Of a stretch of 64,000 nucleotides of DNA, positions 3,788-19,655 are shown piece after piece. Position 1 is the stretch's first letter. Every line of letters begins with the position of its first letter. The translations under genes and the position numbers were made by a program. The stretch is from Devosia sp. (GTDB lineage: Bacteria; Pseudomonadota; Alphaproteobacteria; Rhizobiales; Devosiaceae), in contig JAHCJW010000002.1 of the NCBI GenBank assembly GCA_026126125.1, positions 18,470 through 82,469 on the forward strand. Direction: 5' to 3'. Below the pieces are notes generated by a model. The model was not told the origin of the DNA. It did no database searches and saw only the letters and a list, made by a program, of their open reading frames with translations.

Positions 3788-6292
3788 ATGACACGTTTGA
3801 CCCGGCGAACCTTTATCGCTTCCGTTCCCCCTTTGCTGGCGGCTACGCAGATTCCGGCCTGGGCGGCTCCCGCCTCCAATCTGGAACTGATCGCGGCTCA
3901 GAAGGGAGAGCCCGCAATCGTCAAGCTCTACCGCCAGTTGGAGCGCCTGACGTCGACCGTGACATTGATGACCACGGGCGCCCATCCGGATGACGAGCCG
4001 AGCGGCATGCTGGCTGCACTGCGCCATGTCTATGGCATCCATCCAGTGCTCTATTGCATCACGCGCGGCGAAGGCGGCCAGAACGCCATTGGCCCGGAGC
4101 GGGGTTCGGTTCTCGGCGTGTTGCGCACCCGCGAAATGACCGAAGCCTCGCGCGCGCTCGACGCCTCGCTGGCCTTTGGTGGCCAGGGCCACAATGACAG
4201 CGTGCACGATTTCGGCTTCTCCAAGGACCCCAACCAGACCATTGACCGCTGGGGCCGCGACCGCGTCATCGAGCGCATGACCTGGGCGTTCCGCTACTAC
4301 CGCCCCGACGTGATCATGAACTGCTTCCTCGACGTGGGCGGCCAGCATGGTCATCACCGCGCCGCCAATGTGGCAACCTTCGTGACAGCCGGAATTTCCG
4401 GCAATGCGGCCGAATTCCCCGACCAGATCGCCGCCGGGCTCAAGCCCTGGAGCGTGCCCAAGATCTACCAGCCCGCATGGGGTGGCGGCGGTGGCGTCTA
4501 TGACGACGAAACTCCGCCACCGCCACAGACCCTGGTGGTCCGTGCGCCCGAGCGCGATCCGATCTCCGGCGCCACTTTCCCGCAAATGGGCGAATGGTCC
4601 CGCTCCTGCCACCTGACGCAGGGCATGGGGTCCTGGCGCCCCGATCCACAGACCGAATGGCCGCTCAACCTGAGCTGGGCCGCCAATGGCCAGGCTGGCG
4701 TCGAGGAAAACGACATTCGTGACGGCCTCATCGCCACGGTCGGCCACGTCGCCGAACTCGACGGCATGCCCGCTTCGGCGGCCGATGCGCTGCGCAATGC
4801 CCATGGCGTGATCGAAGAAGCCATTTCCGACTATGGCGACCCGGTTGTAGTCACCAAGAAGCTGGCCGAAATCGGCAAGGCCATCGCCGAAGCCCGCGCC
4901 AGCCTGCCCGAGGAACTGGAACTGCAGGCCGGCCACCGGCTCGACCGCAAGATCAAGGAAGTCGATCTGGCACTGGCCACTGCTGCCGGCATGCATATCC
5001 GTGCCTTCACCGACGGCGGCGATCTGCGCCCGGGCCAGGACATCGTGGTCAAGGCCATCGTCGATGCGCCGGACAGCGTCACAGTGGAATCGGTTGCGGT
5101 CATCGCTCGCGACGGCATCAACAGCGAGCCCGCAGAAGGCGGCGTCAAGGTTTCGATCGCCGCCGATTCGGCGCTGACCAACCCGCTCAACGAGCAGTTC
5201 GACCCGCTCGGGGGGAATGGCGATGCTTATGTGCGCCTCACCGCCAACATCGCCGGCTACAAGGCCGTGCTCGATATCGACCTCGAAGACGCACTGCGCG
5301 TGCTGCCCGAAGCGTCGCTGGAACTGAAGCCCGACGCCGTGGTATTCAACACGGAAGCGGAAATCGTTCCTGTGGAAATGACCGCCGTCGTATCGGGTGC
5401 GACCACGGCCGATCTCGACTTCAACCTGCCCGAGGGCTGGTCGATGACGGCAACCGGCGAGAAGGGTCTGGAAGCGGGCACGTTCGAGCTGGCGCCGCCG
5501 GAGGAACTTGGCACCGAGCGCATCACCATCGCACCCAAACTGCTCGACAAGCAGGCCTATGCCATCAATGTCTTCTCCTATCCCCATATCGGCCGCTCGG
5601 TAGTGCCTACGGAAGTGGCAGTGCCGGTGCAGTCGGTTGGGGCGGTGATTCCGGAAGGCAAGATCGGCTATATCGGCGGCGGCAACGACAACGTGGCCAT
5701 CTGGCTCAAGCGTCTCGGCGTCAAGCTCAAGGAACTCAGCCCGTCCGATATGGAGGCGGGGGCCTATCGCGACCTCGATACCTTGGTCGTGGGCATTTTC
5801 TCCTTTGGCCGCCGCAAGGATCTGGTTGCCGCCCTGCCCGGCGTGCATGAATGGGTGAAGAATGGCGGCCACCTGGTGACCCTCTACCACCGACCGTCCG
5901 ATGGCTGGAACAACGACACCGTGCCGCTGGCCTATCTCAAGATCGGCACGCCTTCGATCCGCTATCGCGTCACGGATGCCAAGGCGCCGGTGACCATGCT
6001 CGAGCCCGATCACCCGTTGCTGACCTATCCGAATGCGATCAGCGAAGCAGATTGGGCCAACTGGGACAAGGAGCGCGGGCTCTACTTCGCTTCCGAATGG
6101 GACGAAGTCTATAAGCCGCTCCTGGCGATGAGCGACGCCGGCGAAGAGCCGCTGACCGGCTCGCTGCTTTCCGCCGAGATCGGCGAAGGCCGCCACACCC
6201 ATACCAGCCTCGTGCTGCATCACCAGCTCGACAAGCTGACACCGGGTGCGTTCCGCATCATGGCCAACCTGATTCAGCCAGCGAAACGCTAA
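3788..6292 (+). CDS. Tat-exported PIG-L (LmbE) family N-deacetylase with long C-terminal region
   Basis: PIG-L family zinc deacetylases remove the acetyl group from N-acetylglucosamine conjugates (MshB, BshB, PIG-L). This 834-residue protein starts with a twin-arginine signal (MTRLTRRTFIASVP to IPAWA), so it should act folded in the periplasm. The zinc motif AHPDDE is at residues 65-70 and the second histidine cluster HGHH at 187-190. The C-terminal half holds beta-rich segments and a ThuA/amidotransferase-like part (IGYIGGGNDN, VKNGGHLVTLYHRP), far longer than the about 250-residue core of the family. The ATG at 3788 is chosen over 3725 because the Tat signal starts there and GAGAGG precedes it. 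The gene is a paralogue of 8496-10859, which lacks the signal. Substrate unknown; context suggests an amino-sugar conjugate. Confidence 0.88.
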   Translation: MTRLTRRTFIASVPPLLAATQIPAWAAPASNLELIAAQKGEPAIVKLYRQLERLTSTVTLMTTGAHPDDEPSGMLAALRHVYGIHPVLYCITRGEGGQNAIGPERGSVLGVLRTREMTEASRALDASLAFGGQGHNDSVHDFGFSKDPNQTIDRWGRDRVIERMTWAFRYYRPDVIMNCFLDVGGQHGHHRAANVATFVTAGISGNAAEFPDQIAAGLKPWSVPKIYQPAWGGGGGVYDDETPPPPQTLVVRAPERDPISGATFPQMGEWSRSCHLTQGMGSWRPDPQTEWPLNLSWAANGQAGVEENDIRDGLIATVGHVAELDGMPASAADALRNAHGVIEEAISDYGDPVVVTKKLAEIGKAIAEARASLPEELELQAGHRLDRKIKEVDLALATAAGMHIRAFTDGGDLRPGQDIVVKAIVDAPDSVTVESVAVIARDGINSEPAEGGVKVSIAADSALTNPLNEQFDPLGGNGDAYVRLTANIAGYKAVLDIDLEDALRVLPEASLELKPDAVVFNTEAEIVPVEMTAVVSGATTADLDFNLPEGWSMTATGEKGLEAGTFELAPPEELGTERITIAPKLLDKQAYAINVFSYPHIGRSVVPTEVAVPVQSVGAVIPEGKIGYIGGGNDNVAIWLKRLGVKLKELSPSDMEAGAYRDLDTLVVGIFSFGRRKDLVAALPGVHEWVKNGGHLVTLYHRPSDGWNNDTVPLAYLKIGTPSIRYRVTDAKAPVTMLEPDHPLLTYPNAISEADWANWDKERGLYFASEWDEVYKPLLAMSDAGEEPLTGSLLSAEIGEGRHTHTSLVLHHQLDKLTPGAFRIMANLIQPAKR

Positions 6293-6300
6293 ACGCTTCC

Positions 6301-6383
6301 GGCTCGCGGTCCCCTCCCTCCGCGAGCCGTCCCCGCCGCACTCGCGGCAGAAAACCTCCGATCCGGCGCCGGATCGGGGGTTT
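6301..6383. terminator. two hairpins between convergent genes, bidirectional terminator
   Basis: GGCTCGCGG (6301-6309) pairs with CCGCGAGCC (6320-6328). A second stem has 16-nt arms with one mismatch (6352-6367 with 6368-6383) centred on CCGGCGCCGG, flanked by AAA on the left and TTTAACTTTTT on the right. It separates the rightward PIG-L gene from the leftward solA-like gene and could end both transcripts. Confidence 0.75.
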
Positions 6384-6447
6384 AACTTTTTGTGGCCTTG
6401 GAGCAAGTCTGCCCAAAGTGGGAGCCAATTTTGGCGGTGCGCGTAAC

Positions 6448-7620
6448 TCAGTCCAGCAAACGGGCGAGATTAAAACTCGAAAGGTCGATTGCCGATCGCC
6501 CGTCCACAGCCCATTGCGCCACGCTTTCACCAATTGCGGCGGAATGTTTGAAGCCGTGGCCGGAGCACGGCGAGACCACCAGAACATTGTCATGATCGGG
6601 ATGGTGATCGATGAGGAACATGCTGTCGGCGGTGGCGGTGTAGATGCAGGTGGTGGTGCGTACCGCTTGGCGGACGGCCCCGGCCATCCGCCCGGAAATA
6701 TGGAAGTCGAACATGCGCTGACTGTCGCTTTCCGGTACGTCGCGGTCGATATTGTCCGGATCGCTCGCAGCACCATAGAACTCGTCGGCGGTCTTGAAAC
6801 TCAGCCCGTCGAGCGAGGGAAAGCCGTAGAAAAAGCCATCCTGGGTATCCCCATGCGGCCACATAAAAACCGGCGACTTCGTCCAGGCGGCAGGGGCGTC
6901 GGGGGCCAATGCGAACCAGTGCATGACCTGACGGGTTGGCTTTAAAATACCCTCATAGGGCGCCCCCAGCAAATGAGCAGCCCATGGACCAGCGGAGACG
7001 ATAAGCTGTGCCGCACCGATGGTTGATCCGTCGGCGAGATGGAGGGTGACGCCATTGGGCTGCGCATCGATCCGCACCACCTGGTGGCCGAACTGCAGCA
7101 CCGCGCCCATCGCCTTCGCCCGATCGAGTTGCGCGGATACGCAATTTTCGGGCACGAGATAGCCGCCGCCGGGCTCGTAATAGCCGATCTCGGACTCCAG
7201 CGGCATCAGGTTGGGGAAACGATAGCGGATTTCAGCGGCCGAAAGAATTTCATGGGGAATGTCGTAGCGCTCGGCGGCGGCGATGGAGCGGCGGATGAAG
7301 CCGGTGCGACCGGGCCGTTCGACATCGTCATTGTGTTCGGAGACGATGATGCTGCCCACCTTATGCAACAGGCTCCGCCCGGTTTCGGCTTCCAGTTGCC
7401 GCCAGATCTCATGCGAGCGTTTGGCCAGAGGCACATAGGCCTCGCCCTCGCCGATGCCGCGCCTGGTGATGCGGGTTTCGCCATGAGTGGAGCCATGGGC
7501 ATGGGGTGGCTGGAACCGATCTATGCCGATGACCCGCACTCCGCGCCGGGCCAGTTGATAGAGCGCGGCACTGCCCATGGCCCCGAGGCCGATGACGGCG
7601 AGGTCAAATGTCTGAACCAT
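6448..7620 (-). CDS. solA: FAD-dependent amine oxidase, SolA / monomeric sarcosine oxidase / amadoriase family
   Basis: A 390-residue flavoenzyme, close to the usual 370-390 of SolA (N-methyltryptophan oxidase), monomeric sarcosine oxidase and bacterial fructosyl-amino-acid oxidases. The dinucleotide fold VIGLGAMGSAALYQLARRG is at the N-terminus, RHGSTHGETRI-type motif follows (AHGSTHGETRITR), and CSGHGFKHSAAIG near residue 360 contains the cysteine that binds FAD covalently in this family. It oxidises a secondary amine, producing hydrogen peroxide and an aldehyde or ketoaldehyde. It overlaps the DMT permease gene by 17 bp and is the last gene of the ROK/PIG-L operon. Given the amino-sugar context, an Amadori or N-alkyl amino compound is a reasonable substrate guess, so the symbol denotes family only. 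Confidence 0.85.
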   Translation of the reverse strand: MVQTFDLAVIGLGAMGSAALYQLARRGVRVIGIDRFQPPHAHGSTHGETRITRRGIGEGEAYVPLAKRSHEIWRQLEAETGRSLLHKVGSIIVSEHNDDVERPGRTGFIRRSIAAAERYDIPHEILSAAEIRYRFPNLMPLESEIGYYEPGGGYLVPENCVSAQLDRAKAMGAVLQFGHQVVRIDAQPNGVTLHLADGSTIGAAQLIVSAGPWAAHLLGAPYEGILKPTRQVMHWFALAPDAPAAWTKSPVFMWPHGDTQDGFFYGFPSLDGLSFKTADEFYGAASDPDNIDRDVPESDSQRMFDFHISGRMAGAVRQAVRTTTCIYTATADSMFLIDHHPDHDNVLVVSPCSGHGFKHSAAIGESVAQWAVDGRSAIDLSSFNLARLLD

Positions 7621-8494
7621 TATTGGATACGTCCTTGGCTGGGTAGCGACGGTCGAGACGCGCGGTCAGGGCCAGCGCAAAAAGAATAATGACAATACCA
7701 AAGATGGTGGTCCAGGCCGGCACTTCGCCAAAGGCGAAGAAGCCGGCGAAACTGGCGAGAACGATCGAGAGATAGCCGAGCGGAGCCAACACATTGGCAG
7801 GGGTCGATTGGTAAGCGCGCAGATAGCAATATTGCGCCACCTGGGCGATGACGCCGATGCCGAGCAATAATGGCCAGGATGAGGGCGCAACCGGCTGCCA
7901 GGCAAAGGCAGCGGGAATGGCGGAAAAAATGGTGAGACCGACCGTATAAAATACCATGAGAACAGTGGTGTTTTCATCCTTGAGCGCGCGGGTCTGCACG
8001 GTTGCGAGCGAACCGAAGAGAACCGCGGCCAGGGCGGCGAGAATGCCGGCATTCCAAGCGACTTCGCCCGGGGCGACCATGACCATAACCCCGGCAAAAC
8101 CGATAGCCGCGCCGATCCAGCGCCAGGGGCCTGAACGCTCGCCGAGCATGAAGGTGGCCAGGGCCAGCACCACCAGCGGCCGCATGAAGCCAATGGCATT
8201 GGCCAGCGCCAGTGGCAGGGCGGTGAGCGCAGCGAAATTGGCATTGAGCGCCGCCGTATTGCAAAACACGCGGAAGGCGTGACGGCCCCATTGCTGTGTC
8301 TGGCGCAGGGCGTGACGATGGCGCCACGCCAGCGGCAGCACGCTGACCAGCCCAACCAGCGAGCGGATGAACACCATCTGCACGGCGGGATAATCGGCAC
8401 CTCCGAGCTTGACCAGCACCGTCATGATGGTGACGAGGCTCATGTCGCAGAGCAACCAGACCATCCCCTTATCGGGCGCGGCGGGCTTGGACAT
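7604..8494 (-). CDS. DMT/EamA family transporter
   Basis: A 296-residue membrane protein with about ten hydrophobic helices in two EamA repeats (first repeat includes FIRSLVGLVSVLPLAW and GFMRPLVVLALATFMLGE; second includes YLSIVLASFAGFFAFGEVP). The drug/metabolite superfamily moves small metabolites across the inner membrane, often as exporters. The ATG at 8494 follows the PIG-L stop codon by one base, so the two are likely translationally coupled, and its own end overlaps the oxidase gene. Within this operon it could export a product or move an amino compound; the direction and substrate are unknown. Confidence 0.87.
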   Translation of the reverse strand: MSKPAAPDKGMVWLLCDMSLVTIMTVLVKLGGADYPAVQMVFIRSLVGLVSVLPLAWRHRHALRQTQQWGRHAFRVFCNTAALNANFAALTALPLALANAIGFMRPLVVLALATFMLGERSGPWRWIGAAIGFAGVMVMVAPGEVAWNAGILAALAAVLFGSLATVQTRALKDENTTVLMVFYTVGLTIFSAIPAAFAWQPVAPSSWPLLLGIGVIAQVAQYCYLRAYQSTPANVLAPLGYLSIVLASFAGFFAFGEVPAWTTIFGIVIILFALALTARLDRRYPAKDVSNNGSDI

Positions 8495-8495
8495 C

Positions 8496-10859
8496 TCAGG
8501 CTGGTTGCAGGAGATTGGCCATGATGCGGAAGGCGCCGGGAACCAGGCGATCGAGTTGATGATGCAGCACGAGACTGGTGTGGGTGTGGCGGCCCTTGCC
8601 GATTTCCGCCGAGAGCATAGAGCCGGTGAGCGGGTTTTCGCCTTCGTCGTGCATGGAGAGGAGCGGCTGATAGGCCTTGTCCCAATCCGAGGCGAAATAG
8701 AGGCCGCGCTCCTTGTCCCAGCCGGCGAAATCATCCTGGGTGATGGCGTTGGGGCCGGCCAGCAATTTGTGGTCGGGGGCAAGCACGGTGACCGGCGCCG
8801 CCGGATTGGTGACGCGCCAGCGCAGCGAGGGCGAGCCGATGACGAGACGTCGCGGTGGCGTGGTCTCGGGCGTCCAGCCATCGGTGGGACGATGATAAAG
8901 GGTGACAAGATGCCCGCCCTGTTCGACCCAATGGTGAAGACGCGGCGCGGCAGCGGCAAGATCGGGCCGGTTGCCGAAGGCGAAAATACCGACGACGATA
9001 GTGTCGAATTCGGCAAGGCTGCCGGAAAGGGCGTCCGCTTCCAGCATTGTGGGATTGGCGCCCATGCGGTCGAGCCAATGGCCGACGCGGTCGCTGCCGC
9101 CGCCGATATAGCCGATGCGGGATTTGGGCAAAGTGAGATCTAGGGCCAGAATGTCGAGGGCCAGCGGTTTGACGAAACGGGTGCGCCCGATATGCTGATA
9201 GGCAATCGGCGTCACCTGATGGGCCACCCGACCGGCAATACGAACGGGCAGGCTATGACGGCCCGGCGCCAGAGCTGGCGTAGCTGTGAGGCGAAAACCG
9301 TCTGTCTCAGCGGTGAATTCGACGCCCTGAGGAGCTTCCAGCGCCATCTGTGTCAGATCGGGCTGCGGCTTGACCGCGACGTGATGACTTGCCTCGGCCG
9401 GAAGCGGGATAATCAACGCCTCGGGGGCAAGGGTCAGCGAATGGGGCGGCTGGACCTGGAATTGCTCTTCGGTATCGACGCTGAAACTGATGGTTTCCCC
9501 TATGAGGGCAGCGGTGACGGAGAGCCAGAGGGTGCCATTGCCGCCCAGGCTTGACCAATCGGGGGCAAAGGCATTGGTGATCTGGGCGTCGGCGCGAACC
9601 TTGAGGGTGAGGTTGGCCCGGGTCTCAACCTCGACGGGCCCGGCGGGGTCGAGTGCGGCGCCGCCTATGGGCTGGACGGCAATAGTATCGGCAAGGCCGG
9701 GCTCGACTTCGACCATGAGGTCGACGCTGCCGCCCGGTACGACATCGGCCGAGGCCAGGCCGACGTAAACGCGGATATTGGCGGCTGCGGCGATGGCCGC
9801 GTCGATCTCGACCAGCTTGCGGGCGAGACGGTGGTCATGGAGGTCGAGCACCTTGGCATCGAGCGCGGACTGGGCTTCGCCGATGTGGCTCCGGGCAGCC
9901 AGAAGGGCCCGGATGGCGGCCCTGGCATCGGGGAAAGACGCGATGGCTTCGGCGAGGGCGGCATCAGCGGCGCCGAGAGCGACATGCGGGGCGAGATCGG
10001 CCAGCCGGGTTGGCAGTTCGGCCAGAATATCGGGTTCCAAACCGCCCGCGAGCAGATGCAGGTCCCAGCGGGCCGGCGCGGGGTGGATCCAGTGCCCCAT
10101 GTTCTGGCTCGCGTGATAGGCACGGGAAATCTCGCCCAGCCGATCATAGGCGAGGCCGGTCGCCGGATCGAAACTCCGCGCGATGACTGTGGTGGTGGCT
10201 GGCGGCGGCGGCACTTCGTCGTCGTAGTAGCCGTTTTCGCCGCCGGTCCAGGCGGGGAGATAGTATTTGGCAACGCGCCAGGGTTTGAGGCCCTCCGCAG
10301 CGTGTTCCAGGAAGCACGCGGGGTCGGCGGCGAGCGCCAGGGCGGTTTCGGCGGCCTGTGTCATGGCGCGGTGATGGCCATGCTGGCCGGGCACGTCGAG
10401 GAAAGTGGGGATGACGATATCGGGCCGGAACTGGCGGTAGGCGCGAACCAAACGCTCGATGGTGCGGTCCTTGCCCCAGCGCGACAGCGTATCGGGGCCG
10501 GATTTGGAGAAACCGAAATCGTGGACCGGGTCATCCGGACCATGGCCGAGCCAGGCCAGGTCGGCGTCGATGACACGAGCGGATTCTTCCATTTCACGGC
10601 TGCGCATGACGCCCAGCACACCGCCACGCTCGGGACCCAGAATGTTCTGGCCGCCTTCGCCGCGGGTCGAACAGGCGATCACCACCCGCATGCCATGCTG
10701 GTGGCGGAGGGTGGCGAGCAGGCCGTTCTGCTCGTCATCGGGGTGGGCGCCGGTGTTCATGACGGTCAGCGGCGAGGCGAGGCGACCAAGGGCGTGACGG
10801 AAGGTGACGAGATAGGGCTGGGCCGCCTGTCGGCGGAGGCGTTCGCGACTGGTGAGCAT
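8496..10859 (-). CDS. cytosolic PIG-L (LmbE) family N-deacetylase, paralogue of the exported one
   Basis: A 787-residue paralogue of the protein at 3788-6292, matching along its whole length, from the zinc motif GAHPDDEQNG and GQHGHH to the ending HTHTSLVLHHQLD..PGAFRIMANL. It has no signal peptide: the protein begins MLTSRERLRRQ directly before the catalytic domain, so it should stay in the cytoplasm. The frame stays open upstream into the ROK gene but that part is unlike the family, so ATG 10859, 25 bp after the ROK stop, is used. Likely reaction: hydrolysis of an N-acetyl group from an N-acetylglucosamine-type conjugate. Together with the exported copy this implies deacetylation on both sides of the inner membrane or two related substrates. 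Confidence 0.87.
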   Translation of the reverse strand: MLTSRERLRRQAAQPYLVTFRHALGRLASPLTVMNTGAHPDDEQNGLLATLRHQHGMRVVIACSTRGEGGQNILGPERGGVLGVMRSREMEESARVIDADLAWLGHGPDDPVHDFGFSKSGPDTLSRWGKDRTIERLVRAYRQFRPDIVIPTFLDVPGQHGHHRAMTQAAETALALAADPACFLEHAAEGLKPWRVAKYYLPAWTGGENGYYDDEVPPPPATTTVIARSFDPATGLAYDRLGEISRAYHASQNMGHWIHPAPARWDLHLLAGGLEPDILAELPTRLADLAPHVALGAADAALAEAIASFPDARAAIRALLAARSHIGEAQSALDAKVLDLHDHRLARKLVEIDAAIAAAANIRVYVGLASADVVPGGSVDLMVEVEPGLADTIAVQPIGGAALDPAGPVEVETRANLTLKVRADAQITNAFAPDWSSLGGNGTLWLSVTAALIGETISFSVDTEEQFQVQPPHSLTLAPEALIIPLPAEASHHVAVKPQPDLTQMALEAPQGVEFTAETDGFRLTATPALAPGRHSLPVRIAGRVAHQVTPIAYQHIGRTRFVKPLALDILALDLTLPKSRIGYIGGGSDRVGHWLDRMGANPTMLEADALSGSLAEFDTIVVGIFAFGNRPDLAAAAPRLHHWVEQGGHLVTLYHRPTDGWTPETTPPRRLVIGSPSLRWRVTNPAAPVTVLAPDHKLLAGPNAITQDDFAGWDKERGLYFASDWDKAYQPLLSMHDEGENPLTGSMLSAEIGKGRHTHTSLVLHHQLDRLVPGAFRIMANLLQPA

Positions 10860-10884
10860 TCTTGATTTCCAGAAAAGGCAGGGA

Positions 10885-12141
10885 TCAGGTCGTCGGATCG
10901 GCGACGCTGAGATGGGGCGAAACGGTATCGAGCAGCGGCAACGCGGCCGCGCCCAAGGCGGCGGTGAGCAAGCCGGTCTGGCCACGCAGGACGCGCGGCA
11001 GGGAACGCTGGCCGCGGGTCGCAACCGAAACGGGCAAAGGCGAGAGAGCGTTGATAACCGAATCGAACACCGAGTCGGGCAGGCCGCCGCCAAAAATCAC
11101 CGTTTCTGGATCGAAGATATTTTCCAGCAGGGCAACGGTGGGCGCCAGATAATCGGCGGCCATGGCGATCCAGTCGTTGAGCGACTGGTCGTTATTGTCG
11201 TGCAGTTTCTGGATATCTTCGACGCTGGCGGTGTAGATGCCGGACATGGCGAGGCGTTCGCGCAGCGCGAATACGGAAACGAAGCGCTCCAACGCACCAG
11301 CGGGGCCATAGACGGCCCGTCCCTTGCGCGGGGTCAGGCCGATATGGCCGATTTCGCCGGCATTGCCGAACGCGCCGCGCAGCGGGCGGCCATCCTGAAT
11401 GACCCCGAGGCCCAGACCAACACCAAAATAGAGGTAACAGAAATTGCTGAGCTGACGGCCTGCGCCATAAAGGCGCTCGCCCACAACGGCGGCGGTGGCG
11501 TCGTTTTCCACAACCACATGCTGGCCGGTGGCCTTGGCGAATAGCTGGACCGGGTCAACGCCCGTCCAACCCGGTAGCGTGGCCGGACCAACCGAGCTCA
11601 TGCCTTCGATCTCGAAGGGACCGGGCATCACCACGCCGATGCCCAGCAGAGAACTGCTGCTGGCGCCAAGCGAGGCCTGAAGCTTGTGCACTTCATTGGC
11701 AGCCAGCCCCGGAACAACATCGGGACCCTGGCTATCGGGCGTCAGATCGACGATCGACTGGCCACGAATGCCGCCGGAAAGGTCGAGCAACACGGTGACC
11801 ATGTGGTCGGCCGCAACTTCGATCCCGGCGGTGAGCGGACCGTTTGGATTGACGGCGAACTGAATGGGAGGCTGGCCTCGACCGGAGCGCAGGCGGCCCA
11901 ACTCGATCAGCAGGCCCTCTTCAAGCAGTTCCTCAACAATATTGGCAACGGCCTGCGGGGTCAGCTGCGCGCGACGTGCGATCTCGGTGCGCCCAAGATG
12001 CTCATGCATACGGATCACTTCGAGCACGACACGACGATTATGAGCCCGGTTGCGTTCCGGATTGGAGCCGATGGCCACGCGCTGGCGCAGGATTTTCTTG
12101 CTGCGACTGTTCACTGTGTCCGGCCCTCCAAACTCACGCAT
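10885..12141 (-). CDS. ROK-family transcriptional regulator (NagC/Mlc-like)
   Basis: A 418-residue regulator with an N-terminal winged helix-turn-helix (GRTEIARRAQLTPQAVANIVEEL) and a C-terminal ROK sugar-kinase-like domain (AGIEVAADHMVTVLLDL; GVVMPGPFE; ENDATAAVVGE; GNAGEIGHIGLTP). The CxCGxxGC zinc motif after the conserved histidine, normal in NagC and Mlc, is absent: this stretch has no cysteines. ROK repressors sense free or phosphorylated sugars, often amino sugars. It is divergent from the CUT1 importer operon and is the first gene of its own operon with PIG-L, DMT and the oxidase, so it probably controls both. Two operator-like palindromes lie in the intergenic region. Confidence 0.92.
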   Translation of the reverse strand: MREFGGPDTVNSRSKKILRQRVAIGSNPERNRAHNRRVVLEVIRMHEHLGRTEIARRAQLTPQAVANIVEELLEEGLLIELGRLRSGRGQPPIQFAVNPNGPLTAGIEVAADHMVTVLLDLSGGIRGQSIVDLTPDSQGPDVVPGLAANEVHKLQASLGASSSSLLGIGVVMPGPFEIEGMSSVGPATLPGWTGVDPVQLFAKATGQHVVVENDATAAVVGERLYGAGRQLSNFCYLYFGVGLGLGVIQDGRPLRGAFGNAGEIGHIGLTPRKGRAVYGPAGALERFVSVFALRERLAMSGIYTASVEDIQKLHDNNDQSLNDWIAMAADYLAPTVALLENIFDPETVIFGGGLPDSVFDSVINALSPLPVSVATRGQRSLPRVLRGQTGLLTAALGAAALPLLDTVSPHLSVADPTT

Positions 12142-12310: not shown

Positions 12311-13549
12311 ATGTTCACCAAAGCAAAGATGGCTGCGCTGGCAGCAAGCATCAGCTTTCTCGCCCTGAGCTCTGCCCAGGCCGTGGAAATTGAATATTGG
12401 CAGTATGTGTTCGACAGCCGCGTCCAGGCCATGGACAAGCTGATCGCGAACTTCCAGGCAGCAAACCCGGACATCACCGTCAAGCACACCACCTTCCCCT
12501 ATGCCGACTACCAGACCCGCGTCGTCGCGGCCAAGGTTGCGGGCCAGGGCCCCGATGTTGTGCAGCTGTTCTACGGCTGGACCGACCAGTTCGTGAATGG
12601 CGGCCTGATCAAGCCGCTCGACCCGGCCGTGTTCCCGCATGACGAGATCGAATCCGAGTTTTTCCCGATCGTTTCGGCGATGAAGCGCGGCGAAGACTAT
12701 TACGGCCTGCCCACTGCCGTGCGCTCGCTCGCCCTGTTCTACAACAAGGCCCTGCTCGATGAAGCCGGTGTCCAGCCGCCGAGCACGCTCGATGAGTTGC
12801 TGGCTGTCGCCGAGGCCACCACCAAGCGCGATGGTGGCGGCAACATCACCACGGCCGGCATCACCATGGATATGGCTGGCCAGGACCACCATTGGTGGCG
12901 CGAGACCCTGATCCGCCAGTTTGGCGGCGCTCCCTACGACGCTGAAGGCAATGTCGCCTATGACGACGCGGCCGGCGCTGCGGCGCTGAAGTTCTACACC
13001 GACCTTCAGACCGAGCATAAGGTCGGCCTCATCGGCTTCATGGACGAAGGCCAGGCTGCATTCCGCGCCGGCATGGCCGCCATGACCATCGACGGCACCT
13101 TCCGTCTCGGGGCTTTTGCCAACAACCCGTTCGAATGGGGCGTGGTGGAACTGCCGGCCAATGCCGAAGGCCTCAAGTCCAACTATTCGAGCTATTTCGC
13201 CAACGCCATCGGCGCGACCGCCGAGGGTGAAGAGCTGGAAGCCGCCCAGAAGTTCCTCGCCTATATCTCCTCGCCCGAAGCGATGGAAATCTGGCTCGCA
13301 ACCGTGGGTGAACTCCCTGCTCGCCGCGACGTCGCCCTGACCGAAGCCAATCTGGCCGACCCGATCCGTGGCCCGTTCCTCAAGGGCCTCGAATACGCGC
13401 AGACCACCCGCTTCTATGACGAAGCCGCACAGCGCCAGACTTCGATCGACATGGTCAACCGCGTTCTGCTCGAGGGCCAGTCGATCGAGGATTCGATCGC
13501 TCAGGCCGCTGCTGCCGAACAGGGCATCATCGACGCCGGTCGTCAGTAA
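12311..13549 (+). CDS. CUT1-family sugar ABC transporter, solute-binding protein
   Basis: A 412-residue periplasmic binding protein of SBP family 1. It has a signal peptide (MFTKAKMAALAASISFLALSSAQA) followed by VEIEYWQYVFDSRVQAMDKLIANF, the usual opening of sugar- and oligosaccharide-binding proteins. It is the first gene of a rightward operon with two permeases, a lyase, an ATPase, a kinase and a NagB-like deaminase. The companion enzymes suggest an amino-sugar derivative as ligand; the protein itself only supports a carbohydrate or glycerol-phosphate-like compound. AGAGAGGG precedes the ATG. Confidence 0.92.
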   Translation: MFTKAKMAALAASISFLALSSAQAVEIEYWQYVFDSRVQAMDKLIANFQAANPDITVKHTTFPYADYQTRVVAAKVAGQGPDVVQLFYGWTDQFVNGGLIKPLDPAVFPHDEIESEFFPIVSAMKRGEDYYGLPTAVRSLALFYNKALLDEAGVQPPSTLDELLAVAEATTKRDGGGNITTAGITMDMAGQDHHWWRETLIRQFGGAPYDAEGNVAYDDAAGAAALKFYTDLQTEHKVGLIGFMDEGQAAFRAGMAAMTIDGTFRLGAFANNPFEWGVVELPANAEGLKSNYSSYFANAIGATAEGEELEAAQKFLAYISSPEAMEIWLATVGELPARRDVALTEANLADPIRGPFLKGLEYAQTTRFYDEAAQRQTSIDMVNRVLLEGQSIEDSIAQAAAAEQGIIDAGRQ

Positions 13550-13567
13550 GCCTAACGTCAAACCATA

Positions 13568-13598
13568 GATCGGTGGCGGCGTGGCGCCGCCACCGATC
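13568..13598 (+). other. intercistronic mRNA hairpin between binding protein and permease
   Basis: GATCGGTGGCGGC (13568-13580) and GCCGCCACCGATC (13586-13598) form a perfect 13-bp stem over a 5-nt loop with no T-run. Such stems after the binding-protein gene of ABC operons, as in malE-malF, partly stop transcription and protect the upstream message, so the binding protein is made in excess. Confidence 0.7.
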
Positions 13599-13620
13599 AT
13601 CGGCTTCCCAAGGAGCGATC

Positions 13621-14553
13621 ATGGCGTCGGCAAACGCAACTTCCCCCGCAGGCCCGTCTCGCTTTTGGGATCGCCTGAATATCAGCACCAAGCGTTTGAT
13701 CTGGGCCTGGGCCTTTCTGGCTCTGCCCATTCTGTTCTACGCTGGCATCCGCTTTTACCCCACCTTCCAGGCCTTCTGGCTGTCCCTGACCAATTGGGAC
13801 CTGCTGCGGCCGGCCCAATTCATCGGCCTGGCGAACTATCAGAAAATGTTCGCCGATCCGATCTTCTGGAAAGTGTTTCAGAACACCTTCCTCTATCTCA
13901 TCATCGGCACGCCGATCAGCCTGCTGATCTCGTTTGTGATCGCCTATTACCTTGACCGCGTTAAGGTGATGCACGGCTTCATTCGGGCGCTCTATTTCCT
14001 GCCCTATTTGACCACGGCCGCGGCCATGGGCTGGGTATGGCGCTGGTTCTATCAGCCGGTTCCGATCGGTGTGATCAACAGCTTTCTCTCCACGCTCGGC
14101 ATTGCTCAGCAGCCGTTCCTGCGCTCGGTCGATCAGGCGCTGATTTCCATCCTTATTCCGGCAATCTGGGCGGGCCTTGGCTTCCAGATCATCATCTTCA
14201 TGGCCGGTCTGCGCGCCATTCCCTCAACCTTCTACGAAGCCGCGCGCATCGACGGGCTGGGGGAATGGGCAATCCTGCGCAAGATCACCATTCCGCTGCT
14301 GAAGCCGACAACCGTTTTCCTGGTCGTGTTTTCGTCCATCGGCTTCCTGCGCATTTTCGACCAGGTCTACAACATGACCACCAATGATCCGGGCGGGCCG
14401 CTGAACGCGACCAAACCGCTGGTGCTCATGATCTATCAGACCGCCTTCTCCTCCTATCAGATGGGCTATGCCGCGGCGCAGACCGTGGTTCTGTTCACCA
14501 TCCTGCTCATCGTCTCGCTGCTCCAGCTTTACGTGCTGAGGGAAAAGAAATGA
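13621..14553 (+). CDS. CUT1-family sugar ABC transporter permease (MalF/UgpA-like)
   Basis: A 310-residue inner-membrane permease with six predicted helices and the EAA loop EAARIDGLGEWAILRKITIPLLKP that contacts the ATPase. The start at 13621 is supported by AAGGAG ten bases upstream; the frame is open a further 16 codons through the hairpin without an initiation signal. Its stop overlaps the next permease start (ATGA). It forms the heterodimeric channel with the following gene. Confidence 0.92.
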   Translation: MASANATSPAGPSRFWDRLNISTKRLIWAWAFLALPILFYAGIRFYPTFQAFWLSLTNWDLLRPAQFIGLANYQKMFADPIFWKVFQNTFLYLIIGTPISLLISFVIAYYLDRVKVMHGFIRALYFLPYLTTAAAMGWVWRWFYQPVPIGVINSFLSTLGIAQQPFLRSVDQALISILIPAIWAGLGFQIIIFMAGLRAIPSTFYEAARIDGLGEWAILRKITIPLLKPTTVFLVVFSSIGFLRIFDQVYNMTTNDPGGPLNATKPLVLMIYQTAFSSYQMGYAAAQTVVLFTILLIVSLLQLYVLREKK

Positions 14554-15407
14554 CCGCCATCACCGAAACCAGGGAATTGGCGGCCAATCGCCGCGACATT
14601 CGCCCCGGCCGCATCATCGCCTGGACCCTGCTGCTGATCGGCGGGCTGATCATGATCACGCCTTTGCTGTTCATGTTCTCGACCTCACTCAAGACCTCAG
14701 GCCAGGTCTATGACCTGCGCCTGATCCCGGCAGCGCCGACATTTGAAAACTACATCAAGGTTCTGGGCGATGGCCGCTTCATGCGGTGGTTCCTCAACTC
14801 GACCTTCATCGCGCTGACCGTCACGCTCTCCAACGTGTTCTTCGACAGCCTTGTCGGCTATACGCTGGCCAAGTTCGAGTTCCGTGGCCGCTATTTCATT
14901 TTCCTCGCCATTCTCTCGACCCTAATGATCCCGACCGAAATGCTGGTGATCCCGTGGTATCTGATGTCAAGCCAGCTTGGATGGATCGACAGCTATTGGG
15001 GCATCATGTTCCCCGGTATGATGACGGCCTTCGGCACTTTCCTGATGAAGCAGTTCTTCGAGGGCGTGCCCAACGACTTCCTCGAAGCGGCACGTGTCGA
15101 TGGGCTCAACGAGTTTACCATCTGGTGGAAGATCGCCATGCCCATGGTTGTGCCCGCCATCTCGGCTCTGGCCATCTTCACCTTCCTTGGCAATTGGACC
15201 GCGTTCTTCTGGCCGCTGATCGTGACCACCTCCAAGGAGCTTTATACGCTGCCCGTGGGCATCTCGAGCTTCTCGGCGGAATCGTCCATTCAGTGGGAGC
15301 TGATCATGACCGGCGCCGCCATCGGCACCATCCCCACGCTCCTCGTGTTCCTGGCTCTGCAGCGGTTTATCGTGCGCGGCGTCATGCTGGCCGGCCTCAA
15401 GGGTTAA
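14550..15407 (+). CDS. CUT1-family sugar ABC transporter permease (MalG/UgpE-like)
   Basis: A 285-residue permease with six helices and the EAA motif EAARVDGLNEFTIWWKIAMPMVVPA. It begins inside the stop codon of the first permease (ATGA at 14550-14553) and ends three bases before the lyase gene, so all are translated as one unit. The short C-terminal end (VRGVMLAGLKG) is typical for the MalG branch. Confidence 0.92.
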   Translation: MTAITETRELAANRRDIRPGRIIAWTLLLIGGLIMITPLLFMFSTSLKTSGQVYDLRLIPAAPTFENYIKVLGDGRFMRWFLNSTFIALTVTLSNVFFDSLVGYTLAKFEFRGRYFIFLAILSTLMIPTEMLVIPWYLMSSQLGWIDSYWGIMFPGMMTAFGTFLMKQFFEGVPNDFLEAARVDGLNEFTIWWKIAMPMVVPAISALAIFTFLGNWTAFFWPLIVTTSKELYTLPVGISSFSAESSIQWELIMTGAAIGTIPTLLVFLALQRFIVRGVMLAGLKG

Positions 15408-15410
15408 GCA

Positions 15411-16918
15411 ATGACCGATCCCCGTCTTTCCGATACTTCCGTCTTTCCGGACCCCGTTTACAAAAAGACCGTTCTGGCGCCGCTGTTTGATGGCGCCAAG
15501 AACCACCATGTCGAGGGCTTCCGCGCCATTGACCGCGCGCACCTGGTGATGCTGGCCGAAACCGGCATTGTCGGAGCCGATCAGGCCAGCGCCATTGCCA
15601 AGGCGCTCGATAGTATCGATGCCGAAATCGAGCCATCCGAACTGGTCTATACCGGCGAGGTGGAAGACTTCTTCTTCCTCATCGAGAAAGAACTAAAGAA
15701 GCGCGTCGGCCCGGATCTGGGAGGACGCCTGCACACGGCGCGCTCGCGCAACGATATCGACCACACCCTGTTCAAGCTCGGCCTGCGCGAACGGCTCAAT
15801 GTGCTGATCGGCAAGGCGCTGGCCCTGCATAAGGCCCTGATCGAGGCCGCCGAGCGGGAAAAGGACACGCTGATCGTGGCCTATACCCATGGCCAGCCGG
15901 CGCAACCGACCACTTTCGGGCACTATCTCTCGGCCATTGTGGAATTCGTCGAGCGCGACATCGGGCGGCTGTTCGATGCCTATGCCATCGTCGATCTCTC
16001 GCCCATGGGCGCCGCCGCGATCACGACGACCGGCTTTCCAACCGACCGGGCGCGCGTTGCCGAGCTGCTCGGTTTTGCCGGCCCGCTACAGAATTCCTAT
16101 TCCTGCATTGCCGGGGTCGATTACATCACCTCGACCTATTCGGCGATCGAGCTGATGTTCCTCCATCTTGGCCGTCCCATCCAGGACTTCCAGGTCTGGA
16201 CCAGTTTCGAGGTTGGACAGATCTATGTGCCCAATAGCCTGGTGCAGATCTCCTCCATCATGCCGCAGAAGCGCAATCCGGTGCCCATCGAGCATTTGCG
16301 CCATCTGGCCAGCCAGACCGTGGGCAGGGCTCATGCCATGCTGACGGTGATGCACAATACGCCCTTCACCGACATGAATGACAGCGAAGGCGAAACCCAG
16401 TCCATGGGCTATGGCGCCTTTGACAGCGCTTATCGGGTGCTGGACCTGCTGGCGGCTCTGGTCGGTCAGATCCGCATCGATCCGGCACGGGTGGCGCAGA
16501 ATATCCGCCGCTCCTGCATCACCATCACCGAACTGGCCGACAGCCTGGTGCGGCGGGAAGGCCTGTCCTTCCGCGAGGGGCACGAAATTGCCGCGGCGGT
16601 CGCCAAGGCCGTCGTGGCCATGGGCGGCGATCTGATGAGCGATGGCTATGGCCCGTTCGGTGCTGCCTTTGAACAGGCAACCGGCCGCACCTCGAGCCTC
16701 GACGCGGCAACATTCGCCGAGCTGGTCTCGCCTGAATACTTCGTTGCCGTCCGCACGCGCTTCGGTGGCCCGGCACCGGAGCCGCTGCTGGCGGCCATCG
16801 CCGGATACAAGGACCGCTCGGCCCAATTGAACGAACAATTTCAAACTCTGCTGCGCCGTCAGTCCGATGCCGCGCGCCTGCTCAAAGAGCGTTTCGACGC
16901 ATTGAAGGGAACAGCCTG

Positions 16919-16919
<1 letters not shown>
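15411..16919 (+). CDS. argininosuccinate-lyase superfamily C-N lyase (ArgH paralogue, possibly EDDS-lyase-like)
   Basis: A 502-residue member of the fumarase/aspartase superfamily, ArgH branch. Visible motifs are HTARSRND (108-115), the TH pair at 159-160 (AYTHGQPAQPTTFGHYL) and the flexible signature loop SSIMPQKRNP at 281-290 that carries the catalytic base serine. Enzymes of this branch split an N-substituted aspartate into fumarate and an amine. True ArgH is about 460 residues and usually reads MPQKKNP; the MPQKRNPVP form, the greater length and the position inside a sugar ABC operon argue against arginine synthesis. Ethylenediamine-disuccinate (EDDS) lyase is a characterised member acting on other N-substituted aspartates. 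With a PfkB kinase and NagB-type deaminase next door, an aspartate-amino-sugar adduct is a possible substrate. Its stop overlaps the ATPase start by one base. Confidence 0.85.
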
Positions 16920-17982
<1,063 letters not shown>

Positions 17983-17986
<4 letters not shown>

Positions 17987-18882
17987 GTTCAACACCTTCC
18001 AAAGCCAAGGCTGTGCTCAGCCTCGGCCGTATCTATTGCGACATGGTGTTTCGCGGTCTCGATGAGATGCCGCAATTGGGCCGCGAGCTGTTCGCGCGCG
18101 ATTTCACCATGACGCCGGGCGGCGGCGCTCTTATCACTGCCGCGCATCTGTCGGCAGGCGGGCGGGCTTCGGCTTTGCTGGCTCGTTTCGGCACCGACGC
18201 CCTCTCCATGGCGCTGGCCGGCCAGATCGAGGCGCTGGGGCTGGACCTTCAGTTCCTCGATCGCCACGAAACCGCTGGCCCGCAAATGACCGTGGTGATG
18301 GTCAAGGACAATGATCGGGCCTTTCTGTCCCGGCGGGCTGGGCATGCGCGCCCGGCCAGCTTCGAGGACGCGCTGGCCTGGCCCGAGGCGGGGCACCTGC
18401 ATATTGCCGAATACGCGACCTTGCATGAAATGCGCGATGCGATCAGCGCGGCCAAGGCCAGGGGGCTCACCATCTCGCTCGACCCGAGTTGGGATGATGA
18501 GCTGATCCGCGATCCGCTTTTCTTCGAGCGAACCACCGGTGTCGATATTTTCCTGCCCAATCAGGAAGAGGCCCGGGCCTTGACCGGGCGCGAAGACCCA
18601 CGCGAAGGCTTGGCGATCCTGGCGCAGCATTTCCCCATAGTCGCCCTCAAATGTGGTGGCGATGGCGCCATGCTGGCCATGGATGGGAAGGTGATCTCTC
18701 TGCCCAGTCCACAGGTTCGTGTCATCGACACGACCGGTGCCGGCGACGCCTTCAATGCGGGCTTCCTTAATGCCTGGCTTGATGGCGCGGAGCCTGAGGC
18801 CTGTCTTGCAGCGGCCATTGGCGCCGGTTCCTGCTCCGTACAGGCATCGGGTGGCACCGGCTCGCTTGTCGGCCTTGCTTAG
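17983..18882 (+). CDS. PfkB-family carbohydrate kinase
   Basis: A 299-residue ribokinase-like kinase. The C-terminal signature DTTGAGDAFNAGFLNAWLDG contains the catalytic aspartate and anion hole; the N-terminal part has the GGGALITAAHLSAGG substrate-binding motif. Family members phosphorylate ribose, fructose, 2-keto-3-deoxygluconate, fructoselysine and similar sugars with ATP. It overlaps the ATPase gene by four bases and precedes the NagB-like gene, so its likely job is to phosphorylate the sugar released from the imported compound before deamination. Confidence 0.9.
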
Positions 18883-18917
18883 TCCTATCTCCATCGCCTA
18901 TGCCTGGAAGCATGATG

Positions 18918-19655
18918 ATGACCAAACCTGAATTCCGTGTGTTCCCCACGGCACAAGCGACCACCCATGCAGTTGCGGCTCACCTCGCCGCTGCCCTCAA
19001 GCAACACCCTGCCCTGCGCCTGGGCCTTGCCACCGGCAATACTTTCGTGCCGGTCTATGCCGCACTCGTCGATCTCTACCGGGCGGGGGGCTTTTCCTTT
19101 GCCCAGAGCATGAGTTTCAATCTCGACGAGTATATCGGCCTGCCCCCAGAGCATCCTGCCTCGTTCGGGGCCTATATGCGGCGGCATTTCTTCGACCATG
19201 TCGATATGCCCGCCGGCAAGGGACGGCTTCCCATTGTCGAGGGCGATATCGATCAGGCGTGCCAGGATTACGAGGCGGCCATCGCCGCTTCGGGAGGCAT
19301 CGACCTGCAAGTGCTCGGCATTGGCCGCAATGGCCATATCGGTTTCAATGAGCCGGGCTCGGCCTTCGACAGCCGAACCCGCCAGATCGACCTGGCCCCA
19401 TCCACCCTTGAAGCCAATCAGGGCGACTTCCCGCCCACGGAGAGCGTACCGCCATCGGCGGTCACCATGGGCATCGGCACCATTCTCGATGCCCGGGAAA
19501 TCGTGCTGGTCGCGAATGGGGCCTCCAAGGCGGAAGCGCTCCGCGCCGCATTCCTGGCACAGCCATCGACCGACTGCCCTGCCTCCGCCCTTCAGTCGCA
19601 TGGCAGGGTTCTGGTATTCTGTGACGAGGCCGCGGCCGAAAAACTGGATCGCTGA
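18918..19655 (+). CDS. nagB: glucosamine-6-phosphate deaminase family protein (NagB-like)
   Basis: About 245 residues. The NagB family motifs are LRLGLATGNTF (phosphate loop), SFNLDEYIGLPPEHPASF with the catalytic aspartate, and GIGRNGHIGFNEPGSAFDSRTR. NagB converts glucosamine 6-phosphate to fructose 6-phosphate and ammonia. Several ATGs compete (18900, 18912, 18915, 18918); GGAAG at 18906-18910 gives good spacing only to 18918. It is shorter than E. coli NagB (266). It follows the kinase by 35 bp, ends the rightward operon and links it to glycolysis. A related phosphosugar amine may be the real substrate. Confidence 0.88.
   Translation: MTKPEFRVFPTAQATTHAVAAHLAAALKQHPALRLGLATGNTFVPVYAALVDLYRAGGFSFAQSMSFNLDEYIGLPPEHPASFGAYMRRHFFDHVDMPAGKGRLPIVEGDIDQACQDYEAAIAASGGIDLQVLGIGRNGHIGFNEPGSAFDSRTRQIDLAPSTLEANQGDFPPTESVPPSAVTMGIGTILDAREIVLVANGASKAEALRAAFLAQPSTDCPASALQSHGRVLVFCDEAAAEKLDR

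What the first reader, a model, noticed from the sequence alone, without database searches (positions are those of the whole stretch)
3788..19655. Candidate catabolic module for an N-substituted amino sugar, combining PIG-L deacetylases, an ArgH-type lyase, a PfkB kinase and NagB
Seen: two PIG-L deacetylases, an oxidase of the SolA/amadoriase family and an ROK regulator stand divergent from a CUT1 importer whose operon contains an ArgH-superfamily lyase, a PfkB kinase and a NagB-type deaminase, with overlapping starts and stops from the permeases to the kinase. Known: PIG-L enzymes deacetylate GlcNAc conjugates; ArgH-type enzymes release fumarate from N-substituted aspartates; NagB deaminates glucosamine 6-phosphate. 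Inference: an aspartate-amino-sugar adduct (for example a Heyns or Amadori compound) would be split into fumarate and an amino sugar, phosphorylated and deaminated to fructose 6-phosphate. I know of no described pathway with this gene set.
Basis: partly seen in the sequence, partly recalled or inferred. Interest (0 to 1): 0.8.

Follow-up and report, generated by a model that had tools for sequence, protein, structure and literature searches.

The report
Glucosamine-conjugate breakdown operon with fumarate lyase
A gene cluster found in many soil bacteria looks like an undescribed pathway that imports a glucosamine compound, cuts off its side groups (one probably leaving as fumarate) and burns the sugar; the best guess for the compound is bacillithiol, a protective thiol made by other bacteria.

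Summary
The genes are real. Among the 80 closest lyase loci, a PIG-L is present in 77 of the 77 whose contig reaches far enough; PfkB is in 75 of 80. On plasmids, 21 of 21 PIG-L hits lie near the lyase. SolA, the second PIG-L and NagB are not core. The lyase is a paralogue: the genome has a canonical ArgH elsewhere. Its catalytic residues are intact, but 13 other positions differ from 30 of 30 canonical ArgHs and are shared by 101-102 of 102 alphaproteobacterial and 6 of 6 Deinococcus lyases. Glucosamine-6-phosphate deaminases (NagB, or NagB-II) stand beside the module in four arrangements, which supports the amino-sugar endpoint but argues against Amadori substrates. An amidase, a fumarate-releasing lyase, and kinase plus deaminase fit an N-acylglucosaminyl-malate, with bacillithiol (Cys-GlcN-malate) the best known candidate. 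The substrate is inferred, not shown. Reader: partly supported.

The parts
3788..6292 (+). PIG-L protein 1 (834 aa), N-terminus with an RR-x-F-type (Tat-like) signal judged by eye; accessory, not core
   Evidence: Pfam PF02585 51.4 bits; twin-arginine N-terminus read from sequence; 43.9% identical to PIG-L 2; in 3 of 80 loci within 9.5 kb of the lyase, in 11 of 80 anywhere in the fetched stretch
6448..7620 (-). SolA-type FAD amino oxidase; accessory
   Evidence: NF008425 428.5 bits, cut-off 257; in 4 of 80 loci
7604..8494 (-). EamA/DMT transporter, candidate exporter of the acyl part released by PIG-L (role inferred)
   Evidence: PF00892 114.9 bits; in 49 of 80 loci
8496..10859 (-). PIG-L protein 2 (787 aa), no signal peptide seen by eye: probably cytosolic N-acylglucosamine amidase/deacetylase (substrate inferred)
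   Evidence: PF02585 64.6 bits; invariant AHPDDE and GQHGHHRA; AlphaFold2 pLDDT 91.1, Foldseek to LnmX, MshB, diacetylchitobiose deacetylase, BshB; PIG-L 2 in 75 of 80 loci, some PIG-L in 77 of 77 evaluable
10885..12141 (-). ROK-family regulator, divergent from the importer operon
   Evidence: PF00480 125.4 bits; in 77 of 80 loci
12311..13549 (+). CUT1 solute-binding protein
   Evidence: SBP_bac_8 132 bits, SBP_bac_1 127.7 bits; in 78 of 80 loci
13621..14553 (+). sugar ABC permease 1
   Evidence: ORF and start; relatives annotated as sugar ABC permease; in 79 of 80 loci
14550..15407 (+). sugar ABC permease 2
   Evidence: ORF; relatives annotated as carbohydrate ABC permease; in 79 of 80 loci
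15411..16919 (+). ArgH-superfamily lyase (502 aa), not the genome's canonical ArgH; proposed to release fumarate from a glucosaminyl C4 acid
   Evidence: PF00206 and PF14698; TIGR00838 305.5 bits against 612.5 for the genome's canonical ArgH; catalytic residues intact, 13 signature changes; tree; Foldseek best to EDDS lyase, then ASL
16919..17986 (+). UgpC/MalK-type ABC ATPase
   Evidence: NF008653 460.8 bits, cut-off 432; in 80 of 80 loci
17983..18882 (+). PfkB-family kinase, proposed glucosamine kinase (inferred)
   Evidence: PF00294 132.6 bits; in 75 of 80 loci; a ROK-family protein takes its place in L082, L101, L103, L172
18900..19655 (+). NagB-type glucosamine-6-phosphate deaminase; start may be the ATG cluster near 18912
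   Evidence: TIGR00502 232.1 bits, cut-off 236.9; in 10 of 80 loci

Best explanation
The module is a catabolic pathway for an N-acylglucosamine joined to a four-carbon diacid. The best candidate is bacillithiol (Cys-GlcN-malate) or its relatives GlcN-malate and GlcNAc-malate, scavenged from bacteria that make it. Proposed course: the CUT1 importer brings the compound in; the PIG-L protein hydrolyses the N-acyl bond (releasing cysteine, a cysteine conjugate or acetate), the released part being exported by the EamA protein where present; the ArgH-type lyase removes the malate by beta-elimination as fumarate, leaving glucosamine; the PfkB (elsewhere ROK) kinase makes glucosamine 6-phosphate; NagB (elsewhere NagB-II, or an enzyme encoded elsewhere) deaminates it to fructose 6-phosphate. 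Shown here: gene identities, conservation, paralogy, residue changes, the alternative kinases and deaminases beside the module. Inferred: every substrate and the order of the PIG-L and lyase steps. The confidence given is for the malate/bacillithiol-type substrate; for the broader claim 'N-acylglucosamine conjugate to fumarate plus glucosamine 6-phosphate' I would say about 0.7.
For: (1) Linkage: a PIG-L in 77 of 77 loci with enough left flank, PfkB in 75 of 80. Of 72,556 plasmid records, 21 carry a PIG-L 2 relative at E<=1e-20 and all 21 carry the lyase a few kb away. (2) Deinococcus plasmids carry ROK, lyase, SBP and permeases, a small PIG-L and a sugar kinase in a different gene order in 4 of 7 lyase loci; six of these lyases were compared: about 33-36% identical to the window's, yet grouping with it (ultrafast bootstrap 100) and sharing all 13 signature residues, 6 of 6. 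(3) In 102 of 102 module lyases ten motif residues are kept, while 13 others differ from 30 of 30 canonical ArgHs. That suggests a C4-diacid substrate with a different leaving group. The best structural match is EDDS lyase, and the column changed from D to M in its variant D290M/Y320M (6rx8) is window V291. (4) Kinase and deaminase vary: PfkB+NagB (window and nine Devosia loci), ROK kinase+NagB (L082, L103), ROK kinase+NagB-II (L101), a ROK-family protein with nagB behind PIG-L (L172). (5) A 2014 review says the LmbE/PIG-L enzymes identified to then act on N-acetyl- or N-acylglucosamine cores; Bca acts on bacillithiol conjugates, presumably leaving GlcN-malate (PMC4101496, passages; PMC4360819, passages). 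(6) In three genomes of one genus the lyase and PIG-L stand divergently without CUT1, with peptide-type SBP_bac_5 proteins nearby (shown for L120 and L122).
Against: No substrate was tested. The window lyase passes NCBI's argH cut-off (305.5 against 279.5). PIG-L 2 passes no BshB or Mca cut-off (Mca 40.9 of 277, BshB2 24.7 of 195), and one PIG-L fold member, GalB, is a hydratase (5cgz). Cysteine links are thin: a protein labelled cysteine dioxygenase beside one locus (L116) has no Pfam or NCBIfam match, and relatives of a persulfide dioxygenase half lie near the module in 2 of 107 loci (L075, L117) but outside its operons. Lyase and importer without PIG-L or kinase nearby exist (L102, L107, L108, L109, L113, L121, L127, L175). 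70 of 80 loci have no NagB within 9.5 kb. The module is sporadic: at E<=1e-100 the lyase was found in 12 of 385 sampled genomes of the class, own included. Aspartate-linked or unknown conjugates are not excluded. The 13 signature positions were picked after the fact from 91 fixed differences, of which Deinococcus shares 33 with the module, 14 with canonical ArgH and 44 with neither; the four other paralogues share each of the 13 in 0 to 2 of 4 cases. The 80 loci are the nearest relatives, not independent draws.
Confidence: 0.42

Rival explanations
1. The substrate is another N-acylglucosamine conjugate whose second part is linked so that the lyase gives fumarate (for example an aspartate-linked or unknown plant or microbial conjugate). 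The logic is the same, the compound different.
For: The gene-level evidence above fits equally; peptide-type binding proteins stand in place of CUT1 near L120 and L122, which may mean a partly peptide-like compound (inference).
Against: I know of no abundant compound of this kind other than bacillithiol (recollection); parsimony only.
Confidence: 0.28
2. One reading: N-(2-deoxyglucos-2-yl)-aspartate is split by the lyase to fumarate and glucosamine, then phosphorylated and deaminated to fructose 6-phosphate.
For: Lyase, PfkB and NagB suffice; EDDS lyase, the best structural match, acts on N-substituted aspartates (its specificity is recalled; entry 6g3i holds N-(2-aminoethyl)aspartic acid by title).
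Against: Leaves the PIG-L, present in 77 of 77 evaluable loci, without a step; NagB is near in only 10 of 80.
Confidence: 0.12
3. Amadori version: fructosyl-aspartate is imported and split, as a lyase variant of the frl operon.
For: The B. subtilis frl operon also has an SBP, two permeases, a kinase and an ATPase (PMC12632257, passages); PfkB scores 58.7 bits against fructoselysine 6-kinase.
Against: That model's cut-off is 247 and ribokinase scores higher (88.8); the two SIS proteins tested are NagB-II-like (311-313 bits), not FrlB-like (about 27 bits); PIG-L unexplained.
Confidence: 0.05
4. The lyase is an extra argininosuccinate lyase in a sugar-import operon, with no common pathway.
For: Passes the TIGR00838 cut-off; annotated plasmid records name its relatives argH or argininosuccinate lyase.
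Against: The genome has a canonical argH (612.5 bits), and 39 of the 41 genomes searched, own included, have one in full length; 13 positions differ from canonical ArgH in 101-102 of 102; it lies between permease and ATPase genes even in reduced alphaproteobacterial loci such as L102, L107, L108.
Confidence: 0.05

Closest known systems
frl (fructosamine) operon of B. subtilis, frlBONMD-frlP
   Same: ABC importer (SBP, two permeases, ATPase) with a sugar kinase for an amino-sugar derivative (PMC12632257, passages; that FrlD is PfkB-type is recalled)
   Different: uses the deglycase FrlB; here an ArgH-type lyase and a PIG-L stand in its place, in some lineages with NagB or NagB-II at the end
EDDS lyase (PDB 6g3d, 6rx8)
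   Same: ArgH-superfamily C-N lyase with the same catalytic motif; best structural match
   Different: 27% identical in the structural alignment; here the context is a sugar-import operon
Canonical argininosuccinate lyase ArgH
   Same: fold, SRN, TH and SS-MP-K-N motifs
   Different: 31% identity to the genome's own ArgH; 13 positions fixed differently; no arginine gene among the scanned window neighbours
Bca/Mca thiol-conjugate amidases and BshB/MshB deacetylases
   Same: PIG-L/LmbE fold and metal motif
   Different: PIG-L 2 is about 500 residues longer and scores far below the Mca and BshB2 cut-offs
NagB / NagB-II glucosamine catabolism
   Same: deaminase and kinase classes at the end of the path
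   Different: would enter through a conjugate rather than free GlcNAc; no NagA was recognised among the scanned module genes, and none was searched for

Membership tests
Argininosuccinate lyase (ArgH) | over NCBIfam TIGR00838 cut-off | tested here: met
   305.5 bits, cut-off 279.5; the genome's canonical ArgH scores 612.5
Argininosuccinate lyase (ArgH) | residues conserved in canonical ArgH outside the catalytic motifs | tested here: not met
   13 positions fixed differently, 0 of 30 canonical share them; that they face the arginine part is recalled, not measured
Argininosuccinate lyase (ArgH) | activity on argininosuccinate | not testable with these tools
   needs assay
Fumarase/aspartase superfamily (fumarate-releasing lyases) | SS-x-MP-x-K-x-N, TH and SRN motifs | tested here: met
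   102 of 102 module lyases
PIG-L/LmbE metallo-amidase | AHPDDE plus later His motif, and fold | tested here: met
   PF02585, invariant columns, Foldseek
Bacillithiol/mycothiol PIG-L enzymes (BshB, Mca, MshB) | over family cut-off | tested here: not met
   PIG-L 2: BshB2 24.7 of 195, Mca 40.9 of 277; Deinococcus small PIG-L: MshB 160 of 224, Mca 116-124 of 277, BshB2 84 of 195; no Bca model appeared in the tables
Bacillithiol biosynthesis | BshA and BshC in the genome | tested here: not met
   BshA best 79.8 of 273.7 in own genome; BshC in 0 of 41 genomes, own included, and in 3 of 14 controls: a biosynthetic role is unlikely
Amadori (frl/fra) catabolism | FrlB/FraB-type SIS deglycase | tested here: not met
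   no such match among the ten window proteins scanned; SIS proteins of L101 and L125 are NagB-II-like; no wider search made
Glucosamine-6-phosphate deaminase NagB | over TIGR00502 cut-off | tested here: inconclusive
   window 232.1 of 236.9; L082 copy 257.6, over

The most novel reading that the evidence does not exclude
A dedicated pathway for eating bacillithiol: Gram-negative soil bacteria and Deinococcus import the thiol or its conjugates, strip the cysteine with a PIG-L amidase and release glucosamine from malate not by a glycosidase but by a fumarate-yielding beta-elimination, a new way to cleave a glycosidic linkage.
Probability: 0.33. Interest if true: 0.85.

Novelty: new variant of a known kind. 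Interest (0 to 1): 0.62.

Why it matters
If right, it gives a fate in nature for bacillithiol-type thiols, a new reaction for the argininosuccinate-lyase superfamily (elimination of a sugar from malate) and corrects a misannotation, since many of these lyases are labelled argH in public plasmid records. If the compound is another one, it is still a widely scattered amino-sugar pathway, undescribed as far as my searches show, whose enzymes can be assayed directly.

Tried and rejected
SolA and the Tat-like PIG-L as core parts: rejected, 4 and 3 of 80 loci. Amadori substrate: disfavoured. The lyase as an EDDS lyase: only distant. Cysteine dioxygenase as support: label not backed by Pfam or NCBIfam, so not counted as evidence. 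Further conserved genes: outside the core the widest ORF cluster covered 15 loci and, within 3.2 kb of the module, 11 ORFs (one search looked at ORFs directly following); some of these ORFs are certainly not genes. An ureidoglycine aminohydrolase follows PIG-L in L033 and look-alike ORFs do in L035 and L060; taken as neighbours.

Papers: ten searches listed no paper whose title or abstract start describes this gene set or bacillithiol as a growth substrate; two listings were capped (12 of 79, 12 of 41), and the library holds open-licence papers only.

Other lyase paralogues on plasmids stand in other contexts (Haladaptatus, Haloarcula, Cupriavidus, Geminicoccaceae, A. vitis, Bradyrhizobium) and were left out of the module counts; the Caballeronia record had no annotation there. 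Rows dropped: the tree used 59 of 142 sequences after thinning module and canonical rows at 85% identity (41 of 102 module, 8 of 30 canonical, all 6 Deinococcus, all 4 others). Residue counts used the 30 canonical ArgH loci returned, of 41 genomes searched. L171-L177 came later and are not in the counts. The odds did not need changing.
Full report
What is there. The window lies in a 3.9-Mb genome; the closest lyase relatives in named genomes are from Devosia, 91% identical. From left to right: PIG-L 1 (3788-6292+), SolA-type oxidase (6448-7620-), EamA transporter (7604-8494-), PIG-L 2 (8496-10859-), ROK regulator (10885-12141-), then divergently SBP (12311-13549+), permeases (13621-14553+, 14550-15407+), ArgH-type lyase (15411-16919+), UgpC-type ATPase (16919-17986+), PfkB kinase (17983-18882+), NagB (18900-19655+). 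The plus operon is tightly packed: gaps of 71, -4, 3, -1, -4 and 17 nt.

What is conserved. A scan of 84,980 species genomes with the lyase kept 80 loci, the best of 191 confirmed, by record title mainly Devosia, Rhizobium, Neorhizobium, Agrobacterium, Aminobacter, Chelativorans and Microvirga. Within 9.5 kb of the lyase: ATPase 80 of 80, permeases 79 and 79, SBP 78, ROK regulator 77, PIG-L 2 75, PfkB 75, EamA 49, NagB 10, SolA 4, Tat-like PIG-L 3. The five without PIG-L 2 are three contig ends (L009, L063, L078) and two loci (L019, L021) that carry the other PIG-L, so a PIG-L is present in 77 of 77 evaluable loci. PfkB is missing in L024, L026, L052, L075 and L082; L082 has a ROK kinase and NagB instead. 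More distant: at E<=1e-100 the lyase is in 12 of 385 sampled genomes of the class (own included), and a search of 398 genomes of the phylum with model PRK06705 at E<=1e-90 added one. Of these 12 non-own loci, PIG-L 2 is near in 9, PfkB in 2, the ROK regulator in 5, the importer SBP in 9. On plasmids the lyase at 52% or more identity is on 27 records and PIG-L 2 relatives (E<=1e-20) on 21; all 21 are among the 27 and lie a few kb from the lyase. The six without PIG-L are two Shinella, Bosea, Paroceanicella, Roseomonas and Terrarubrum. Aminobacter supplies 9 of the 21, so records are not independent.

The same set in Deinococcus. Seven Deinococcus plasmids, the query's own included, carry a lyase 55% or more identical to that of D. 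actinosclerus. Four have ROK, lyase, SBP, two permeases, a small PIG-L (about 280 aa) and a carbohydrate kinase; three of these four also have a large PIG-L, with an apparent signal peptide by eye in two. Three have lyase and importer only. Gene order differs from the alphaproteobacterial one, and no ATPase gene was seen there.

The lyase is its own subfamily. Of 41 genomes searched (own plus 40 relatives), 39 have a full-length canonical ArgH at 575-627 bits (own 612.5), one has it split over two contigs (G768) and one, 62% complete, shows only an extra copy (G760); 15 of 41 have an extra copy at 290-328 bits, the window's being 305.3 (the neighbours of the other 14 were not looked at). In a tree of 59 sequences with canonical ArgH as outgroup the module lyases (41; support 87) and the Deinococcus lyases (6; support 100) form one clade with ultrafast bootstrap 100. 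In the alignment, the ten motif residues S112, R113, N114, T159, H160, S282, M284, P285, K287 and N289 (window numbering) are kept in 102 of 102 module, 30 of 30 canonical and 6 of 6 Deinococcus lyases, except T159 in 5 of 6. By contrast F88, F89, D117, A157, Y230, Q279, V291, H295, H315, N316, F319, D321 and N323 are present in 101 or 102 of 102 module and 6 of 6 Deinococcus lyases, in 0 of 30 canonical ones, and in 0 to 2 of four other paralogues. These 13 were selected from 91 fixed differences, where Deinococcus follows the module in 33, canonical ArgH in 14 and neither in 44. That the kept residues hold the succinyl part and the changed region holds the leaving group is recalled from ArgH work, with one pointer here: EDDS-lyase entry 6rx8 is a D290M/Y320M variant, and comparing the printed alignments of variant and native chain, the D-to-M column falls on V291 and the Y-to-M column next to D321.

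PIG-L 2. By eye (no predictor was run) it starts without a signal peptide in the window and in 52 of the 54 representatives printed, whose starts were chosen by script; the other two (L019, L021) are the PIG-L 1 type. The AlphaFold2 model is confident (mean pLDDT 91.1, pTM 0.89). Foldseek matches its N-terminal part to LnmX, MshB, diacetylchitobiose deacetylases, BC1534 and BshB, and also to the hydratase GalB; in the 50 rows shown nothing convincing matches the rest. A 2014 review states that all LmbE-like enzymes identified to then act on an N-acetylglucosamine core or, for Mca and Bca, an N-acylglucosamine core (PMC4101496, passages); GalB shows that this is not absolute.

The end of the path. 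In the window and in nine Devosia loci (L007-L011, L016, L017, L019, L023) NagB lies beside PfkB. In Skermanella (L082) and Paroceanicella (L103) a ROK kinase and NagB follow the ATPase. In Roseomonas (L101) a ROK kinase and an SIS protein follow; that protein and the one in L125 match NagB-II at 313 and 311 bits (cut-off 430) and FrlB at about 27. In Loktanella (L172) nagB lies behind PIG-L in the divergent operon and a ROK-family protein follows the ATPase, by annotation only. No ROK kinase passes a specific cut-off. Two deaminase folds in four arrangements point to glucosamine 6-phosphate as the common intermediate. Most loci have no deaminase beside them; the window's genome has two further NagB-like proteins below the nagB cut-off (128.6 and 105.9 of 236.9).

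Inference. An N-acylglucosamine amidase, a lyase that should release fumarate, and enzymes for free glucosamine together describe a glucosamine bearing an N-acyl group and a malate or aspartate. Bacillithiol is Cys-GlcN-malate, reported from many Firmicutes and Deinococcus radiodurans, and Bca cuts its conjugates to the cysteine part (PMC4360819, passages), presumably leaving GlcN-malate for recycling (PMC4101496, passages). L-malate linked through O2 presents the same geometry to the lyase as argininosuccinate's C2-N bond (own reasoning). The host does not seem to make bacillithiol: no BshC in 41 of 41 genomes, own included, while B. subtilis, Thermus and Deinobacterium among 14 controls have it; own BshA best 79.8 of 273.7 bits. 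An exporter of the EamA type beside PIG-L would suit release of cysteine better than of acetate; this is a guess.

Against it. No assay; no family cut-off for a bacillithiol enzyme is met; cysteine-related neighbours are few and doubtful; reduced loci keep lyase and importer only, so the lyase might act before PIG-L or on another compound there. In three genomes of one genus (L120, L122, L123) CUT1 is absent; SBP_bac_5 proteins stand nearby in L120 and L122, and L123 shows a similar start.

Judgement. I rate the module as a variant of CUT1-importer amino-sugar operons that my ten paper searches (listings only) did not show described.

Noticed in passing
window 19929-20884 (+): Transposase-like ORFs (135 and 232 aa, overlapping in two frames; IS630 type by recollection, not searched) directly after NagB.
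   Followed up: no
L120, L122, L123: Lyase and PIG-L divergently paired without the CUT1 importer; SBP_bac_5 peptide-type binding proteins stand nearby in L120 and L122.
   Followed up: partly
L174 (Geminicoccaceae plasmid), 8923-10437: Another ArgH-like lyase inside an ABC transporter operon followed by CoA transferases: further ArgH paralogues with catabolic-looking contexts exist.
   Followed up: no
L117 1161-2039: Persulfide-dioxygenase half of Blh (561 bits) near the module on an Aminobacter plasmid; on the opposite strand to the EamA-PIG-L operon.
   Followed up: partly
L116 333-986: Protein annotated 'cysteine dioxygenase family' next to the EamA and PIG-L genes; no Pfam or NCBIfam match.
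   Followed up: yes
L102 13717-17101: nadA, L-aspartate oxidase and nadC follow shortly after the lyase-importer operon in Terrarubrum; relation unknown.
   Followed up: no
window 2632-3282 (+): HAD-family hydrolase upstream of PIG-L 1.
   Followed up: no
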